A DNA stretch of 53,170 nucleotides, from the IMG/VR virus record IMGVR_UViG_3300018429_000006, positions 1 through 53,170 of that record, one strand, 5' to 3'. The position numbers and the translations under genes are program-made. Under the pieces are notes generated by a model, which saw only the letters and a list, made by a program, of their open reading frames with translations, was not told the origin of the DNA and searched no databases. This document shows, in pieces, positions 45,655 to 51,148 of this stretch (positions are counted from its first letter, which is position 1; each line of letters starts with the position of its first letter). Source of the stretch: a virus.

Positions 45655-46002
45655 ATGGAAACGGAAATTGAACTAACCAAGTGCCCCGATTGTCAGGTTG
45701 AACCGGGAAATCGACACCAAGACGGGTGTGATGTTGCTCGCTGCAAGCACACCGGAAAGCAGATGCTATCTTGCTTTTTGGTGGCATTCGATGAGGATGG
45801 TGGTATTGACTTCATCGAGGATACCAGCCATGAGTGCGGACCTGACATCTGGACCGGAGAGTGGCCCGGAGTCAAGGTCTGCCGCGAGAACAACTGGTAT
45901 ACTGCTCCGGAGTCGATCTACGGCTACATGGAAGATCTCAACAGTGTCCCGTCTCGTGCTGTGTGGAACCCTGAGATTGAAGACTGGGAGGCCCGTAAAT
46001 GA
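45655..46002 (+). CDS. Small Cys-rich protein, possible zinc-binding
   Basis: This 115-residue acidic protein has CPDCQVEPGNRHQDGCDVARC near its N-terminus (Cys10, Cys13, then His and two more Cys), a pattern that could hold one zinc. The rest is an acidic beta-rich domain with several Trp (DIWTGEWPGVKVCRENNWY). I recognise no function. The -10-like TAAGCT at 45643-45648 would place a transcript start near the ATG, so leaderless translation is possible. Its stop overlaps the next start (ATGA). Confidence 0.65.
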   Translation: METEIELTKCPDCQVEPGNRHQDGCDVARCKHTGKQMLSCFLVAFDEDGGIDFIEDTSHECGPDIWTGEWPGVKVCRENNWYTAPESIYGYMEDLNSVPSRAVWNPEIEDWEARK

Positions 46003-46424
46003 AAATCGGAATCGACATTGGACGAGTACTAATGGGCGGCGAGGGAGAGGATACCGTCTTCAACGAGGAGAACTATCTGCTCACTCCGGAGGTTCCCGGA
46101 GCCTACAGAGCCGTAAGCAAGCTCGCTAAGCAGCGGCATGAGCTTCACATCATCTCCAAGTGTGGGGAAGTTGTCGAGGAGCGGTCCATGGATTGGCTGG
46201 ATGCTGAGGGATTCTTCTACCATATCCTCCCGCACCGTGTACACTTTGTCCGGAAACGCCCCTTGAAGGCTCCAATGGCGCAGGCTCTTGAGCTTGACAT
46301 CTTCATCGATGACCGCAAAGACATCATCGATTCTCTGCATGGAGTCGTCAAGTACCCGATCCTGTTCACGTCGTGGGAGCAGACCAACGCGGAACTGGTG
46401 AAGATCTTTGCTTCGAACGGGTGA
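45999..46424 (+). CDS. HAD-superfamily phosphatase-like protein
   Basis: This 141-residue protein has the HAD layout: motif I IGIDIGRVLM with the nucleophile Asp6, motif II HIISK, and motif IV FIDDRKDI (about 107-109). The second Asp of motif I, which normally acts as general acid/base, is Gly8, so hydrolysis may be weak or lost. It may be a nucleotidase or a 3'-phosphatase-like end-healing enzyme. It overlaps the previous gene by ATGA and shares 17 nt with the next small ORF. Confidence 0.65.
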   Translation: MKIGIDIGRVLMGGEGEDTVFNEENYLLTPEVPGAYRAVSKLAKQRHELHIISKCGEVVEERSMDWLDAEGFFYHILPHRVHFVRKRPLKAPMAQALELDIFIDDRKDIIDSLHGVVKYPILFTSWEQTNAELVKIFASNG

Positions 46425-46566
46425 TATAGTCAAGATCGTCTGCCCGAACAAGGGAGACAAGCTCGGTTTGATTTCTGACGTGGTAGATGATAGAATGGTA
46501 CTCATCGGAAAGAACTGGTTCGACCTCCAAGATTGCGAAGTAACTTTGCTTCACAGGGAGAGTTGA
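46408..46566 (+). CDS. 52-residue KOW/SH3-like small protein
   Basis: This short ORF starts at TTG 46408 inside the HAD gene (GGTGAAG upstream) and stops at 46564-46566. Its sequence (GDIVKIVCPNKGDKLGLIS then MVLIGKNWFDLQDCEVTLL) reads as one small beta barrel with KOW-like spacing of Gly residues. KOW-type domains often bind RNA or RNA polymerase; here that is inference. The stop codon overlaps the -35 box of the first Y RNA/tRNA promoter. Confidence 0.5.
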   Translation: MLRTGDIVKIVCPNKGDKLGLISDVVDDRMVLIGKNWFDLQDCEVTLLHRES

Positions 46567-46592
46567 CACGGACTCCGAGAACGTGGTATAAT
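46563..46592 (+). promoter_or_regulatory. Strong promoter for the first Y RNA and tRNA cluster
   Basis: TTGACA (46563-46568), 18-nt spacer ending GTGG, TATAAT (46587-46592). The predicted start, 7 nt downstream at 46599, is the first base of the Y RNA outer helix. Confidence 0.8.
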
Positions 46593-46598
46593 AGATGT

Positions 46599-46670
46599 AC
46601 ACGAAGCGCCAGTAAGAGTTACTCCCAAACTATTTATTTGATAAAACACTCTAACTACCATTTCTCGTGT
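46599..46670 (+). ncRNA. Y RNA candidate Y1 (72 nt)
   Basis: The outer helix is ACACGA (46599-46604) with TCGTGT (46665-46670), followed inside by AGCG on the 5' side and preceded by TTTC on the 3' side. The inner helix is AGAGT (46615-46619) with ACTCT (46648-46652), and a TACTCCC motif stands where the other copies have TACTTC. The loop is A/T-rich with no tRNA-like part. The CGAAG context at the helix end is the known Ro60-binding feature of Y RNAs. It starts at the predicted transcription start and ends 3 nt before tRNA-Trp. Confidence 0.65.
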
Positions 46671-46673
46671 CTT

Positions 46674-46746
46674 AGGTCAGTAGCGTAACGGCTAACGCAA
46701 CGCTCTCCAAAAGCGTAGATTGCAGGTTCGAATCCTGTCTGGCCTG
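46674..46746 (+). tRNA. tRNA-Trp (CCA)
   Basis: A full cloverleaf: acceptor AGGTCAG/CTGGCCT, D-arm GCGT/ACGC, anticodon loop CTCCAAA on an ACGCT/AGCGT stem, T-loop TTCGAAT, discriminator G. Confidence 0.92.
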
Positions 46747-46750
46747 CAAG

Positions 46751-46780
46751 TTTGCACAAACTATAAATGTGTGGTAGAAT
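46751..46780 (+). promoter_or_regulatory. Promoter candidate before tRNA-Pro
   Basis: TTTGCA (46751-46756), 18-nt spacer ending GTGG, TAGAAT (46775-46780). The architecture matches the stronger promoters of this region. Confidence 0.55.
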
Positions 46781-46794
46781 AGTAAGAACAATCC

Positions 46795-46868
46795 CGGTGT
46801 GTGGGAAAATTTGGTAATCCGCGTCGTTTGGGGCGATGAGAGTGCAGGTTCAAATCCTGTCACACCGA
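46795..46868 (+). tRNA. tRNA-Pro (TGG)
   Basis: Acceptor CGGTGTG/CACACCG, anticodon loop TTTGGGG, T-loop TTCAAAT, discriminator A. The next Y RNA candidate starts 2 nt downstream. Confidence 0.92.
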
Positions 46869-46870
46869 CT

Positions 46871-47044
46871 TTGACCGAAGCGATTGAAAAAGATACTTCA
46901 CATGAATGAATATGTCAGTATCGAGTCAGGGGAAACTCTGGCTCCTAGCGTAGGAACCTTCCTACTTGTTTTTCGTTTCACAATGTAGTACCCTTGTAAT
47001 ACCTAAGCAGTACCCAAACTCTTTTTCTGGTATTTCTCGGTCAA
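46871..47044 (+). ncRNA. Y RNA candidate Y2 (174 nt)
   Basis: The outer helix is 8 bp: TTGACCGA (46871-46878) with TCGGTCAA (47037-47044). Inside it are AGCG (5') and TTTC (3'). The inner helix is also 8 bp: GAAAAAGA (46886-46893) with TCTTTTTC (47020-47027), followed by TACTTC (46894-46899). The large interior forms its own hairpins (GATACT/AGTATC, GAGTCAG/CTGGCTC) but no D- or T-arm. A hairpin with a T-tract (46950-46973) inside it could end some transcripts early. It begins 2 nt after tRNA-Pro. Confidence 0.65.
46950..46973 (+). terminator. Possible internal terminator within Y2
   Basis: GTAGG / CCTAC with a 6-nt loop is followed by TTGTTTTT. The stem is short, so termination would be partial at most. 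Confidence 0.4.
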
Positions 47045-47050
47045 TAATTT

Positions 47051-47147
47051 TTGAAAGAAGTGTAGGACTCCGTTCCTTCGGTTAACGCAGCCCACAAGCT
47101 GCCAGCGGTTCAAACCCGCACATCGGGGTCCGTCTTTCCTCTTTCAA
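47051..47147 (+). ncRNA. Y RNA candidate Y3 (97 nt)
   Basis: Outer helix TTGAAAGA (47051-47058) with TCTTTCAA (47140-47147); inside it AGTG (5') and TTTCC (3'). Inner helix GGACTCCG (47065-47072) with CGGGGTCC (47124-47131), then TTCCTTC in place of TTACTTC. The interior has a GCAGC/GCTGC hairpin and a T-arm-like GCGG-TTCAAAC-CCGC. It superficially resembles a tRNA with GGACTCC/GGGGTCC as acceptor, but the T-arm and anticodon spacing do not fit. It ends 3 nt before tRNA-Gly. Confidence 0.6.
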
Positions 47148-47150
47148 TAT

Positions 47151-47223
47151 GCAGAAGTAACTCAGTTGGTAGAGTGCCTTCCTTCCAAGTAGGATGTCGC
47201 GAGTTCGAGTCTCGTCTTCTGCT
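47151..47223 (+). tRNA. tRNA-Gly (TCC)
   Basis: Acceptor GCAGAAG/CTTCTGC, anticodon loop CTTCCAA, T-loop TTCGAGT, discriminator T. The anticodon stem has one T-T mismatch (30-40). Confidence 0.9.
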
Positions 47224-47225
47224 CT

Positions 47226-47294
47226 ATTCTAGATGTGCAGTATCAAGTTACTTCATTTGGCGAAACAACACTTGACACATACGTTCCCTAGGAT
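47226..47294 (+). ncRNA. Y RNA candidate Y4 (69 nt)
   Basis: Outer helix ATTCTAG (47226-47232) with CTAGGAT (47288-47294, one T-G pair); internal TGTG (5') and GTTCC (3'). Inner helix TCAAG (47243-47247) with CTTGA (47271-47275), followed by TTACTTC (47248-47254). It is small like Y1, with no tRNA-like part. It begins 2 nt after tRNA-Gly and is the last RNA before the Ro60-like gene. The match to the consensus is looser than in Y1 and Y2. Confidence 0.5.
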
Positions 47295-47357: not shown

Positions 47358-48983
47358 ATGTCCAAGTTCAATACTGCCGCTGCACGATCACGTGCTGGCG
47401 TCGGACCAATCAAGTCCGAATCAACTTCCACTCTCAACACCTTCAACGGTGCTCAGGGCTTTGCCCGCGACTCCAAGTCCGAACTCTTCCTTGCCGCTGT
47501 CTCTGACTTCGGTGGAGAGGCAACCTTCTACGAGTCTGCTGACAACCGCACCAAGCGCATTGCCAAGCTGACCCATGAGGTCGCTGTACAGGACCCTGAG
47601 TGGATCACCAACTTCACCACATGGCTCCGCAACGAAGCCAACCTCCGTACCATCTCTCTGACCATTGCTCTTGAGGGTGCCAAGGCGCTCAACAAGGCTG
47701 GTGTTCCGGGTGGACGTACGCTGGTTGCCGGGTCGATCCGTCGTGCCGATGAGGCCGGTGAGGCTCTGGCCTACTGGATGGGCAACTTCGGTCGCAAGAT
47801 CCCTTCTGCTGTCAAGCGCGGTATCGCTGACGGGGCTGTCAAGTCCTTCAACGAATACTCCCTTGCCAAGTACGACACGTCGTCCCACGGCTTCCGTTTC
47901 GGTGACGTGATCGAACTGACTCACCCATCTCCTAAGGATGCCAAGCAGTCCGAACTCTTCAAGTTTGCCCTTGATCGTCGTCGTGACGCGTCCGCAGAGC
48001 CTTCCGAGTCTCTGACCATGCTTCAGGCTCGTAAGGAATTCCTTGCCCTGTCCCCTGCCGAAAAGCGCAAGCTTGTCGATTCGGGAGATGCTGTCATGGT
48101 TCTCGACAACGCTGGCCTCACGTGGGAAGTTCTCGGTTCCACTATCGAGGGCGGCATGGACGCCAAGGCGTGGGAAGCTGTGATCCCTTCAATGGGGTAT
48201 ATGGCGCTGCTGCGTAACCTCCGCAACTTCGAAGATAAGGGCGTCTCCAAGGTTGTCCTTGCTCAGGTTGCTGAGCGGATCTCCAACCCTGAAGAGGTTG
48301 CCAAGTCCCGCCAGCTTCCGTTCCGCTTCCTGTCGGCCTACAACGCGAACTCCGGTTCGCTGCGTTGGGGATTCCCGCTTGAAGAGGCTCTGAACGCGTC
48401 TCTGGCTAACGTTCCTTCTCTGGATGACACCCTTATCCTCGTGGACCGTTCCGGCTCCATGTTCATGACGCGTTCCAAGAACACGGACCTGACTAGCGCG
48501 GACTCCGCTGCTATCTTCGGTACTGCCTTGGCTCTCCGTGGTAACCGCAACACGCTGGTACAGTTCGGATCTACTTCCTCTGAGATCACTCTCAAGAAGA
48601 CGGACTCCGTTCTGAAGACGCTGGAGAAGTTTAGCGCCCTTGGTGGTACGGCGACGTACGACGCCATTGTGAAGCACTTCAAGCCGGGAGTCCACAAGCG
48701 TGTTGTCCTCGTCACTGACGAACAGGCAAACGGGTTCTACCACCGTCTGAATGGCAGGAACGCGAGCTACTGGGACGGTTACGACCGTGTACAGGGCAAC
48801 GTTCTCGACGCACTCCCTTCAAACGTCCCTACCTACACGTGGAACCTTGAAGGCTACACTGCCGGTCAGGGTGAGTCCAAGCCAAACCGCACGTACCTCG
48901 GCGGACTGTCCGATCAGGCTTTCAAGCTGATCCCTCTCGTAGAAGCGGGCTATGACGCTGGCTGGCCTTGGGAAACCAAGTGA
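47358..48983 (+). CDS. Ro60/TROVE-domain RNA-binding protein
   Basis: This 541-residue protein matches Ro60 (bacterial Rsr). The N-terminal 330 residues form a helical-repeat TROVE ring (FARDSKSELFLAAVSDFGGE, LRNEANLRTISLTIALE, IPSMGYMALLRNLRNFEDKG). The C-terminal von Willebrand A domain has a complete MIDAS: D363-x-S365-x-S367 (DRSGS), T431 and D454. Ro60 holds misfolded RNA ends in its central hole and Y RNAs on its outer surface, and can link them to PNPase or other RNases. Its surroundings, seven Y RNA candidates and many tRNAs, fit this exactly. The site AAAGG precedes the ATG at a long spacing. A 24-residue ORF overlaps its stop. Confidence 0.92.
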   Translation: MSKFNTAAARSRAGVGPIKSESTSTLNTFNGAQGFARDSKSELFLAAVSDFGGEATFYESADNRTKRIAKLTHEVAVQDPEWITNFTTWLRNEANLRTISLTIALEGAKALNKAGVPGGRTLVAGSIRRADEAGEALAYWMGNFGRKIPSAVKRGIADGAVKSFNEYSLAKYDTSSHGFRFGDVIELTHPSPKDAKQSELFKFALDRRRDASAEPSESLTMLQARKEFLALSPAEKRKLVDSGDAVMVLDNAGLTWEVLGSTIEGGMDAKAWEAVIPSMGYMALLRNLRNFEDKGVSKVVLAQVAERISNPEEVAKSRQLPFRFLSAYNANSGSLRWGFPLEEALNASLANVPSLDDTLILVDRSGSMFMTRSKNTDLTSADSAAIFGTALALRGNRNTLVQFGSTSSEITLKKTDSVLKTLEKFSALGGTATYDAIVKHFKPGVHKRVVLVTDEQANGFYHRLNGRNASYWDGYDRVQGNVLDALPSNVPTYTWNLEGYTAGQGESKPNRTYLGGLSDQAFKLIPLVEAGYDAGWPWETK

Positions 48984-49062: not shown

Positions 49063-49096
49063 ACACTCCGGAAGTTGACACCAGCTTCCGGAGTGT
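49063..49096. repeat. Perfect 12-bp inverted repeat around a -35 box
   Basis: ACACTCCGGAAG (49063-49074) and CTTCCGGAGTGT (49085-49096) flank a 10-nt spacer that starts with TTGACA. It could be an operator, or a terminator stem for the Ro60-like transcript without a T-tract. Confidence 0.75.
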
Positions 49097-49104
49097 GGTA
49101 TAAT
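49075..49104 (+). promoter_or_regulatory. Strong promo­ter for the second Y RNA and tRNA cluster
   Basis: TTGACA (49075-49080), 18-nt spacer ending GTGG, TATAAT (49099-49104). The start of transcription at about 49111 coincides with the outer helix of Y5. Confidence 0.8.
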
Positions 49105-49109
49105 AGAAT

Positions 49110-49235
49110 TACTGAAGCGCTAGAGATGAGTTACTTCCTCATATGAAAAAGTTCTGGGTTCGAGTCCCAGTCACGGTCCTTGGCCGTGGTAGATTAATTG
49201 GCAAATCAAACACTCGTCTCATCCATTTCTCAGTA
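49110..49235 (+). ncRNA. Y RNA candidate Y5, tRNA-mimicking (126 nt)
   Basis: Outer helix TACTGA (49110-49115) with TCAGTA (49230-49235); AGCG inside on the 5' side, TTTC on the 3' side. Inner helix GATGAG with CTCATC, then TTACTTC. The interior is a permuted tRNA-like unit: T-arm CTGGG-TTCGAGT-CCCAG, acceptor-like 3' strand TCACGGT, a short turn, acceptor-like 5' strand GCCGTGG, TA, then D-arm GATT-AATTGGCA-AATC. This is the YrlA type of bacterial Y RNA, in which the Ro-binding helix takes the place of the anticodon arm. It ends 3 nt before tRNA-Thr. Confidence 0.75.
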
Positions 49236-49315: not shown

Positions 49316-49467
49316 GTTCAGATGTGATTGACTCCTGTTACTTCTATTGCACAGAAAGTATGTCGGTTCAAGTCCGGCTGCGTCTCTCCTTGCCGTTGGT
49401 GAGGTTCGAGACGTATGATGTAATTGGCTAACACTTATAAACACAGGAATCGCCTAGTTCTCTGGAC
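49316..49467 (+). ncRNA. Y RNA candidate Y6, tRNA-mimicking (152 nt)
   Basis: Outer helix GTTCAGA (49316-49322) with TCTGGAC (49461-49467); TGTG inside on the 5' side, GTTC on the 3' side. Inner helix TCCTGT (49333-49338) with ACAGGA (49443-49448), then TACTTC. The tRNA-like unit has a T-arm GTCGG-TTCAAGT-CCGGC (49362-49378), acceptor-like TGCGTCT (49379-49385) pairing with AGACGTA (49409-49415) across a 23-nt loop, and a D-arm-like TGT-AATTGGCTA-ACA. The order is permuted relative to tRNA. It begins 4 nt after tRNA-Thr. Confidence 0.7.
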
Positions 49468-49476
49468 AACTAATTT

Positions 49477-49617
49477 CATATCGAAGCGCAGTAACGGGAT
49501 ACTTCAATGGAAACCCTAGGTCGTAGGTTCAAATCCTGCTCCCCCGACTCATCGGGGGGATAGCTCAGTCTGGTAGAGCGAGAGTAAATAGCACCCGGTA
49601 CGTCCTTTCTCGATATG
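49477..49617 (+). ncRNA. Y RNA candidate Y7, tRNA-mimicking (141 nt)
   Basis: Outer helix CATATCGA (49477-49484) with TCGATATG (49610-49617); AGCG (5') and TTTC (3') inside. A short inner helix CGGG/CCCG is followed by TACTTC. The tRNA-like unit has T-arm GTAGG-TTCAAAT-CCTGC (49523-49539), acceptor-like TCCCCCG (49540-49546), a 6-nt turn, CGGGGGG (49553-49559) with one extra G, and a canonical D-arm GCTC-AGTCTGGTA-GAGC. A tRNA finder may report pieces of this as a broken tRNA. It lies 5 nt before tRNA-Phe. Confidence 0.75.
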
Positions 49618-49622
49618 AGTAT

Positions 49623-49812: not shown

Positions 49813-49989
49813 ATGGCTAATCCAGCTACCAACAAGGTGTCAGAAGACACTCTCTTCACCCAGCAGGGCGCTCTTCCAACAGAGGTGTCCGAAAACGAAC
49901 GCATCAACATTCAGGACCTGTCCACAGGCGAAGTTGAAGCTACTGAGAACTCGGAAAACAAGCGTATTGCGACCGTAGTCTACCCGTAA
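49813..49989 (+). CDS. 58-residue polar protein
   Basis: ATG 49813 has a good CTAGGAG site and the ORF ends at TAA 49987-49989, followed by a strong terminator, so it is a complete transcription unit with its own promoter. The protein is hydrophilic and acidic, with no hydrophobic core (MANPATNKVSEDTLFTQQ, then ENERINIQDLSTGEVEATEN). The function is unknown; it may be disordered. Confidence 0.6.
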   Translation: MANPATNKVSEDTLFTQQGALPTEVSENERINIQDLSTGEVEATENSENKRIATVVYP

Positions 49990-50002
49990 TCTTACCGATT
50001 GA

Positions 50003-50037
50003 GGGGCCGACTACCACATGTAGTCGGCCCCTTTTTT
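50003..50037 (+). terminator. Strong Rho-independent terminator
   Basis: A perfect 12-bp stem GGGGCCGACTAC / GTAGTCGGCCCC (loop CACAT) is followed by TTTTTT. Confidence 0.95.
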
Positions 50038-50431: not shown

Positions 50432-50503
50432 GCCCTCATCGTATAGTGGTAAATATCTCGGACCTTCACTCCGAAGACTGGAGTTCGAATCCCCATGGGG
50501 GTA
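50432..50503 (+). tRNA. tRNA-Glu (TTC)
   Basis: Acceptor GCCCTCA/TGGGGGT, anticodon stem TCGGA/TCCGA, loop CCTTCAC. Position 33 is C instead of the near-universal T, and the T-stem has an A52-C62 mismatch. Confidence 0.88.
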
Positions 50504-50521
50504 CGCATAGGAAGTGGAAAG

Positions 50522-51148
50522 ATGACCGTAGGTGTTTACGCGTTCTTCGATCAGGACGGTAACTGCCTCTACGTAGGACAGTCCGGTGATATCGAGGGAC
50601 GGCACAAGCAACACATTAATCAACTCCGTGGAGGCTATCATAGACGATCAGACTTCAATGAATGGTTTTCTTCTCACGGAGAATCCAAGTTGTCGTTCAA
50701 GTTGCTGGAGAAATGTTCCAATGATGTTGACTCTAGGAATTACCTAGAGATCGAGTATTTTAACCAACTAAACCCCATGTTCTATGGCCAAATCCCCTCC
50801 ATGAGTAATAGATTTGAGCACTCAGATGAGACTCGTACTCGGATCGCTGAGTCAGTTAGAAAACGTCTGGAAGATCTAGGAGTGTATGAAACTCGGAAAT
50901 GTCCTTGTGGAAGCGAATTTACAGCCTTGGTAAGGAGAACGACTAAGTACTGCTCTAGAAAATGTGTAGTGGATGACCGAAAATCCGTTCTCGACTGCAC
51001 CACTGTTTATGATCTGTATATGTCTGGTTTGACACTTACCCAAGTAGGAGATATACTTGGAGTAAGCTACAGAACAGTCCATAGCTTCATGGTAAAGCAC
51101 AACATACCTAGACGAGCTAGTGGACCGAAAGCAAATTTGCCCCTATAG
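50522..51148 (+). CDS. GIY-YIG homing endonuclease
   Basis: ATG 50522 (GGAAGTGGAAAG upstream) gives 208 residues. The GIY-YIG nuclease domain is N-terminal: VGVYAFFD (GVY 4-6), CLYVGQSGDIEGRHKQH (YVG 17-19, R27) and LEIEYFNQLNP with the catalytic Glu. A Cys4-type finger (CPCGSEF then YCSRKC, about 130-150) and a C-terminal helix-turn-helix (LTLTQVGDILGVSYRTVHSF) provide DNA binding, as in SegA-like enzymes. It lies between two tRNA-Glu genes, and its stop codon lies inside the second one, marking a recent or tightly fitted insertion. Confidence 0.85.
   Translation: MTVGVYAFFDQDGNCLYVGQSGDIEGRHKQHINQLRGGYHRRSDFNEWFSSHGESKLSFKLLEKCSNDVDSRNYLEIEYFNQLNPMFYGQIPSMSNRFEHSDETRTRIAESVRKRLEDLGVYETRKCPCGSEFTALVRRTTKYCSRKCVVDDRKSVLDCTTVYDLYMSGLTLTQVGDILGVSYRTVHSFMVKHNIPRRASGPKANLPL

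What the first reader, a model, noticed from the sequence alone, without database searches (positions are those of the whole stretch)
46599..47294. Four Y RNA candidates without tRNA-like parts, upstream of the ro gene
Seen: the elements before the ro gene (72, 174, 97 and 69 nt) share the helix plan and motifs but differ greatly in their interiors: A/T-rich loop, multi-hairpin, T-arm-like hairpin, and minimal loop. The three behind the ro gene are tRNA mimics. Inference: a shared Ro-binding handle with exchangeable cargo domains, like adaptors that direct Ro to different partners.
Basis: inference. Interest (0 to 1): 0.7.

Follow-up and report, generated by a model that had tools for sequence, protein, structure and literature searches.

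The report
Phage Y RNAs with exchangeable interiors
A soil phage carries seven small RNAs around its gene for the ring-shaped protein Ro; all share the same predicted Ro-binding stem but differ in what the stem holds, and the same mixed sets turn up beside Ro genes in most related phages and actinobacteria examined, which suggests interchangeable attachments for one RNA-handling machine.

Summary
The four elements exist at the stated places (46599-46670, 46871-47044, 47053-47149, 47226-47294; 72, 174, 97, 69 nt) and share one architecture: outer stem, GA[A/U]G[C/U]G, inner stem, UACUUC 17 nt after the core, 3' UUCUC. A descriptor of it finds 7 elements in the ro region against 0.05 per shuffle. 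At the first position behind ro, the window and Arthrobacter phage Atuin share 95% of the handle but 26% of the interior (tRNA mimic versus bare loop); a second position in Streptomyces phages behaves alike. Most other positions keep their interior class, so exchange is occasional. The mixture is not a phage peculiarity: 80 actinobacterial ro loci hold 198 such RNAs within 900 nt upstream (103 tRNA mimics, 60 without tRNA parts, 34 with a T arm only; one in shuffles). DNA scans for the short type that did not use Ro recovered ro loci, apart from one orthologous coding match. Element 2 is a lineage-specific multi-hairpin with compensatory changes. Element 3 has a T arm, so 'without tRNA-like parts' is too strong. 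Phage Y RNAs are already known; the non-tRNA interiors and their exchange are a new variant. Ro binding and partners are untested.

The parts
46563..46592 (+). sigma-70-type promoter TTGACA-18-TATAAT (TG before -10) directly upstream of element 1
   Evidence: 12 of 12 consensus matches; equivalent promoter read at the same place in L001, L015, L016, L017
46599..46670 (+). Y RNA candidate E1, 72 nt, short A/U-rich loop, no T or D arm; holds a 4-bp/7-nt-loop hairpin CAAA(CUAUUUA)UUUG at 46626-46640
   Evidence: descriptor hit; fold; orthologues in L001, L015, L016, L017, L020
46871..47044 (+). Y RNA candidate E2, 174 nt, multi-hairpin interior, no T arm
   Evidence: fold z -3.1; six sequences, 97.3% of cells paired, 6 pairs changed on both sides, slid controls 0; orthologues L015, L016, L017, L020, L127; absent in Atuin
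47053..47149 (+). Y RNA candidate E3, 97 nt, small hairpin plus T-arm-like hairpin, no D arm or acceptor stem
   Evidence: fold z -3.8; orthologues in L001, L127, L015, L017, L020
47226..47294 (+). Y RNA candidate E4, 69 nt, short loop UUC(AUUUGGC)GAA at 47252-47264
   Evidence: descriptor hit; orthologues in L016, L017, L020, L127; absent in Atuin; single-sequence fold not better than shuffles (z -0.9)
47358..48983 (+). ro gene (Ro60/Rsr-like, TROVE + von Willebrand A domains)
   Evidence: Pfam PF05731 and PF13519, PHROG 850, PDB TROVE entries 9L5Y and 9KOP, 69% identical to Atuin 'Ro-like RNA binding protein'
49075..49104 (+). sigma-70-type promoter TTGACA-18-TATAAT directly upstream of E5
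   Evidence: 12 of 12 consensus matches
49110..49235 (+). Y RNA candidate E5, tRNA mimic here; the position where relatives hold other interiors
   Evidence: Rfam YrlA 24.5 bits for part of it, below cut-off
49316..49467 (+). Y RNA candidate E6, tRNA mimic
49476..49618 (+). Y RNA candidate E7, tRNA mimic
   Evidence: Rfam YrlA 35.7 bits over its tRNA-like part, below cut-off 69

Best explanation
The four elements are Y RNAs: small RNAs that the phage Ro ring most likely holds by a common handle (outer stem with GRUGCG / UUCUM core, inner stem, UACUUC). What sits beyond the handle sets what the Ro particle does. Full tRNA mimics (E5-E7) would bring in partners that recognise tRNA, such as PNPase or tRNA enzymes; short-loop types (E1, E4) would occupy and gate Ro's RNA-binding face without recruiting such a partner; E3 is a half mimic with a T arm; E2 is a lineage-specific structured module with an unknown partner. 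Shown: the elements, the conserved handle, its linkage to ro, the distinct interior classes, and exchange of interiors at two positions. Inferred: that they are transcribed, that the handle binds Ro, and that each class has its own role.
For: Seven elements against 0.05 per shuffle. Two related phages with the same tRNA order but no ro, Racecar and Talia1610, lack them. 424 elements at 166 ro loci: outer-stem positions 5 and 6, not required by the finder, pair in 96% and 84% against 48% and 40% expected from independent columns. 218 handles found without using UACUUC: 200 have it, 195 at 17-18 nt from the core. DNA scans of 2.9 million viral contigs for the short type, using no Ro sequence: 24 of 24 and 14 of 17 lie just upstream of ro on the same strand; the other three are one orthologous coding match without a handle stem. 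Same handle and same mixture at 80 actinobacterial ro loci. Interior exchange. E2 covariation.
Against: No expression, binding or partner data. Rfam's YrlA model does not recognise any of the four. E1 and E4 fold only weakly alone (z -1.6, -0.9). Interiors of E1, E3 and E4 diverge nearly to the null, so part of an interior may be free to drift. Elements 1, 3 and 4 of the window each deviate by a base in a conserved motif.
Confidence: 0.72

Rival explanations
1. Only the handle matters; interiors are spacers that close the stem and drift or are replaced freely, so the four RNAs are redundant copies that raise the dose of one Ro ligand.
For: Class changes are tolerated at two positions; interiors of E1, E3, E4 are near the null identity; phages differ in copy number (2 to 7).
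Against: E2 interior is 79% identical and shows compensatory changes; 72 of 88 non-redundant short-type RNAs close UUC with GAA/GAG against 37 in shuffles; most chromosomal sets hold a mimic together with a short or T-arm-only type.
Confidence: 0.3
2. They are decoys or sensors in tRNA-directed conflict: RNAs that imitate parts of tRNA soak up host anticodon nucleases or tRNA-targeting defences, with Ro as the carrier.
For: All lie inside a phage tRNA array; phage tRNAs are reported to counter tRNA-targeting defences (PMC10264068 and PMC11555353, abstracts); a 7-nt-loop, U33-containing hairpin follows UACUUC in a subset.
Against: The same sets are chromosomal in many actinobacteria; E1, E2 and E4 have little tRNA likeness; in Salmonella, YrlA was not cut by the RecA-dependent anticodon nuclease (PMC7790460).
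Confidence: 0.2
3. They are processing or spacer hairpins of the tRNA operon, unrelated to Ro.
For: They alternate with tRNA genes; two have a promoter just upstream that could serve the whole cluster.
Against: Ro-less relatives keep the tRNA operon without them; chromosomal and Gordonia phage copies sit next to ro with no tRNA genes between; Ro-blind DNA scans recover ro loci.
Confidence: 0.03
4. They are decayed tRNA mimics: E1 and E4 are deletion remnants of YrlA-type RNAs under no selection.
For: Short types can be derived from mimics by loss of T, acceptor and D arms; the E5 position shows such a difference in Atuin and L015.
Against: Short types are common at ro loci across phages and chromosomes (60 of 198 chromosomal, 75 of 195 viral elements), with a preserved handle.
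Confidence: 0.08

Closest known systems
YrlA, bacterial Y RNA with tRNA-like domain (Rfam RF02553; Chen et al. 2014 RNA 20:1715, cited in PMC7790460 and PMC8394870)
   Same: Encoded next to a Ro orthologue; stem of the 5' and 3' ends with a further module beyond it; E5-E7 have the permuted T arm - acceptor - D arm.
   Different: E1, E2, E4 lack the tRNA-like module and E3 has only a T arm; none reaches the Rfam cut-off. Chromosomal actinobacterial copies also stay below it (best 49.7 against 69).
YrlB, second Y RNA of the Salmonella rsr-yrlBA-rtcBA operon (PMC9879122, PMC7790460)
   Same: A second Y RNA next to YrlA in one Ro locus, i.e. more than one type per Ro.
   Different: Its structure could not be checked here (source paper not held); Salmonella has two, this phage seven.
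Deinococcus Y RNA in RYPER (Ro-Y RNA-PNPase; reviewed in PMC4726728, PMC8394870)
   Same: Model for the mechanism: handle on Ro, other module tethers a nuclease or gates access.
   Different: Shown in Deinococcus; no evidence yet in phages.
Putative Y RNAs of mycobacteriophages and of Listeria phage CKA15 (PMC12282133)
   Same: Phage-encoded Rsr with abundant small RNAs nearby.
   Different: There suggested from transcription and HHpred; the passages read describe no handle, classes or exchange.
Vertebrate Y RNAs (hY1, hY3, hY4, hY5)
   Same: One Ro60, several Y RNAs with a common lower stem and different loops.
   Different: Bacterial Y RNAs are not homologous to them (PMC4726728); different core motif.

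Membership tests
Ro-associated bacterial/phage Y RNAs (broad sense) | Encoded next to a Ro/Rsr gene | tested here: met
   All four within 760 nt upstream of ro; Ro-blind DNA scans of the short type find ro next to it in 38 of 41 places, the rest being one orthologous coding match
Ro-associated bacterial/phage Y RNAs (broad sense) | 5' and 3' ends form a stem with a conserved core shared with chromosomal Y RNAs | tested here: met
   Core G-R-W-G-Y-G / UCUM plus UACUUC at fixed distance, common to phage and 80 chromosomal ro loci
Ro-associated bacterial/phage Y RNAs (broad sense) | Bound by Ro in vivo or in vitro | not testable with these tools
   needs immunoprecipitation or gel shift
Ro-associated bacterial/phage Y RNAs (broad sense) | Transcribed as small RNA | tested here: inconclusive
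   12-of-12 promoters end 7 nt before E1 and 6 nt before E5; no transcript data
YrlA (Rfam RF02553) | Covariance-model score at or above gathering (69 bits) | tested here: not met
   No match for E1-E4; E7 35.7 and E5 24.5 bits
YrlA (Rfam RF02553) | tRNA-like domain (T arm, acceptor-like stem, D arm) | tested here: not met
   E1, E2, E4 none; E3 T arm only; E5-E7 complete
YrlA (Rfam RF02553) | Tethers Ro to PNPase | not testable with these tools
   needs biochemistry
tRNA | ARAGORN / Rfam tRNA match | tested here: not met
   None of the seven elements is called in the window

The most novel reading that the evidence does not exclude
Phage and actinobacterial Ro is a general RNA-loaded hub: a constant Y handle carries swappable RNA modules (short gate, anticodon-arm-like hairpin, T-arm half mimic, complete permuted tRNA mimic, or the lineage-specific multi-hairpin of E2), each of which directs the same ring to a different nuclease or tRNA-handling partner, and phages assemble arrays of up to seven of them by exchanging modules on fixed handles.
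Probability: 0.3. Interest if true: 0.8.

Novelty: new variant of a known kind. Interest (0 to 1): 0.57.

Why it matters
Bacterial Y RNAs are usually discussed as tRNA mimics. Here RNAs with the same handle and no tRNA domain are nearly as common as the mimics next to actinobacterial ro genes, and phages exchange interiors on a constant handle. That turns the question of what the non-Ro part of a Y RNA is for into a testable one: the relatives supply natural domain swaps at one locus (window, Atuin, L017). The descriptor also recovers a set of RNAs that Rfam's model misses and that annotators sometimes label as tRNA.

Tried and rejected
Rfam at permissive threshold: nothing for E1-E4. A stricter 3' core (UUCUC only) missed Streptomyces-phage elements, which use UUUCUA, and the chromosomal form, which uses GGUGCG; extending it brought them in. 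E2 outside this phage group: a viral-contig pattern scan gave 11 hits; 5 are in ro-bearing contigs of this group, 6 are coding-like matches without the handle. Pairing of 5' GAAG with the CUUC of UACUUC as a pseudoknot: rejected because GAUG variants keep UACUUC unchanged. 'E1/E4 loops imitate one particular anticodon': loops vary too much. Chen et al. 2013/2014, Sim and Wolin 2018 and Wang et al. 2018 are not held, so their exact consensus and any mention of non-tRNA Y RNAs could not be checked.

Full report
Setting. The window is an IMG/VR virus fragment of 53,170 bases. Its nearest named relative in the ro region is Arthrobacter phage Atuin (Ro 69% identical over the whole length; locus). 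The ro gene at 47358-48983 encodes a TROVE plus von Willebrand A protein whose solved relatives are TROVE proteins. It lies inside a tRNA array.

Observation. Reading the sequence and a descriptor search confirm the four elements at 46599-46670, 46871-47044, 47053-47149 and 47226-47294, with the stated lengths, and three more behind ro (49110-49235, 49316-49467, 49476-49618). The plan is: outer stem; GA[A/U]G[C/U]G; inner stem; UACUUC immediately after the 5' strand of the inner stem; interior; 3' strand of the inner stem; UUUCUC; outer stem. In the ro region 7 hits are found against 0.05 per dinucleotide shuffle. Motif deviations in the window are UACUCC (E1), UCCUUC (E3) and UUCCC (E4). Alone, E2 and E3 fold better than shuffles (z -3.1 and -3.8) and E1 and E4 do not clearly (z -1.6, -0.9); the case for E1 and E4 rests on comparison, not on folding energy.

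Comparison with near relatives. Viral contigs L015, L016, L017 and L127 (L020 is cut inside ro) and Atuin keep the array. Racecar and Talia1610 have the same order of tRNA genes but no ro, short gaps, and no element. Atuin has E1, E3, E5, E6, E7 and one further T-arm-bearing element, but lacks E2 and E4. At the E5 position handles are 76-95% identical in all pairs. Interiors are a tRNA mimic in the window, L016 and L127, a T-arm-only hairpin set in L017, and a short loop in Atuin and L015. Window against Atuin is 95% (handle) and 26% (interior). In Streptomyces phages the position nearest upstream of ro shows the same: about 150 nt with full mimic in L004, L007, L131 and L134, about 110 nt with a T arm only in L027, L028 and L042. 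Two Gordonia phages share the second handle while its element is 148 or 195 nt long. At the remaining positions the interior class stays the same; E2 (79%) and E7 (81%) interiors are well above the null (57-59%).

Element 2. Six sequences support one structure: 44 pairs, 97.3% of cells paired, 6 pairs with a change on both sides (14 cells; the shuffle control averages 5.0, and sliding the partner by 1-3 columns gives none). The both-side changes lie in two interior hairpins plus the terminal pair of the outer stem. A pattern scan of IMG/VR finds it only in ro-bearing contigs of this phage group. It is thus a selected, lineage-specific interior with no counterpart among the loci examined.

The general pattern. 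A scan of genomes gave 80 actinobacterial ro loci. Reading seven of them shows the same plan with GGUGCG as 5' core and CUCGG as 3' core, and the same UACUUC. The descriptor finds 198 elements within 900 nt upstream of ro and 1 in shuffles: 103 tRNA mimics, 60 without tRNA part, 34 with a T arm only, 1 other. In 91 further distinct viral ro loci there are 195 elements upstream (75 without tRNA part, 75 mimics, 38 T arm only, 7 D-like only) and none in shuffles. Over 424 elements at 166 loci, outer-stem positions not required by the search still pair (96% and 84% against 48% and 40%). UACUUC is not an artefact of the search: 218 handles found without it carry it in 200 cases, 170 at exactly 17 nt and 25 at 18 nt from the core. 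Searching 2.9 million viral contigs by DNA pattern for the short type alone, with no Ro sequence, gave 24 of 24 (GGUGCG form) and 14 of 17 (GAUGCG form) directly upstream of ro on the same strand; the remaining three are one orthologous coding match with no handle stem.

Expression signals. The only two perfect sigma-70 promoters in the region end 7 nt before E1 and 6 nt before E5, and equivalent promoters can be read at the same two places in Atuin, L015, L016 and L017, so the transcript should start at or next to the handle. This is a prediction.

Mechanism. Described in Deinococcus: Y RNA tethers Rsr to PNPase and gates RNA access (PMC4726728, PMC8394870), and the tRNA-like part of YrlA is described as the PNPase-binding module. 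By analogy the handle is the Ro-binding part here, the mimics tether tRNA-recognising partners, and the short types gate Ro without tethering. E2 would bring in something else. The association, handle and classes are shown; Ro binding and the roles are inferred.

What is known. Phage and bacterial Y RNAs near Ro are known (PMC12282133; PMC7790460). The abstract of Chen et al. 2014, as I remember it, says that at least one Y RNA per species has a tRNA-like domain, which leaves room for others. The paper is not held, so the claim that the non-tRNA class, the UACUUC element and the interior exchange are new could not be checked. Hence 'new variant of a known kind'.

Limits. Interior classes rest on sequence patterns for T and D loops; a few elements are misclassified (D-like matches in short loops). 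The sample is actinobacterial because the query Ro was. No transcript or binding data were available.

Noticed in passing
window 46626-46640 and 47252-47264; 424 elements in L-loci: A hairpin with a 7-nt loop of anticodon-loop type (C-U-N-N-N-A-A; e.g. CUGUUAA, UUUGGGA) often follows or starts in UACUUC. Non-redundant sets: short type 14 against 1.8 in shuffles (U33 14/14), mimics 18 against 3.5 (U33 18/18, R37 17/18); 5-bp stem anchored at UUC in mimics 14 against 1.8. The YrlA description read here names only D, T and acceptor arms.
   Followed up: partly
L004:4769-4843, L007:4774-4847, L011:4745-4835: Public records annotate parts of Y elements as tRNA genes (GiJojo tRNA-Arg cct, LuckySocke tRNA-Ser gct, Frankenweenie tRNA-Pro tgg).
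   Followed up: partly
RF02553 on five actinobacterial genomes (L207-L214): Rfam's YrlA model finds the actinobacterial ro-linked Y RNAs only below its gathering score (best 49.7 of 69 bits), so the clade is missed by standard annotation.
   Followed up: partly
L008:4688-4882 and L009:4729-4876: Gordonia phages Rabbitrun and Neville share one handle (same 5' and 3' ends as printed), but the element is 195 or 148 nt long, a further case of a changed interior.
   Followed up: partly
L011:4500-4925: In Streptomyces phage Frankenweenie (Ro 39% identical) the set appears with a variant core (CCGGAGCG ... GUUGGCCGG) that keeps UACUUC; a short type, a T-arm type and a mimic follow each other.
   Followed up: no
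L002:4309-4381: In ro-less Racecar the tRNA-Gly to tRNA-Thr gap, where ro sits in the window, holds a hairpin CATAGAAGCG ... CGCTTCGTATG of unknown nature.
   Followed up: no
window 45999-46424: ORF just before E1; the gene at this place in Atuin is labelled 'phosphatase', and the ORF matches PHROG 420 (unknown function).
   Followed up: no
window 50495-51148: GIY-YIG homing-endonuclease-like ORF between two tRNA-Glu genes of the array; no such gene is annotated at this place in Atuin.
   Followed up: no
window 49813-50036: Small ORF between the tRNA-Gln genes, also present in Atuin, L015, L016 and L017, preceded by TTACGTAACA and followed by a strong hairpin with a U run.
   Followed up: no
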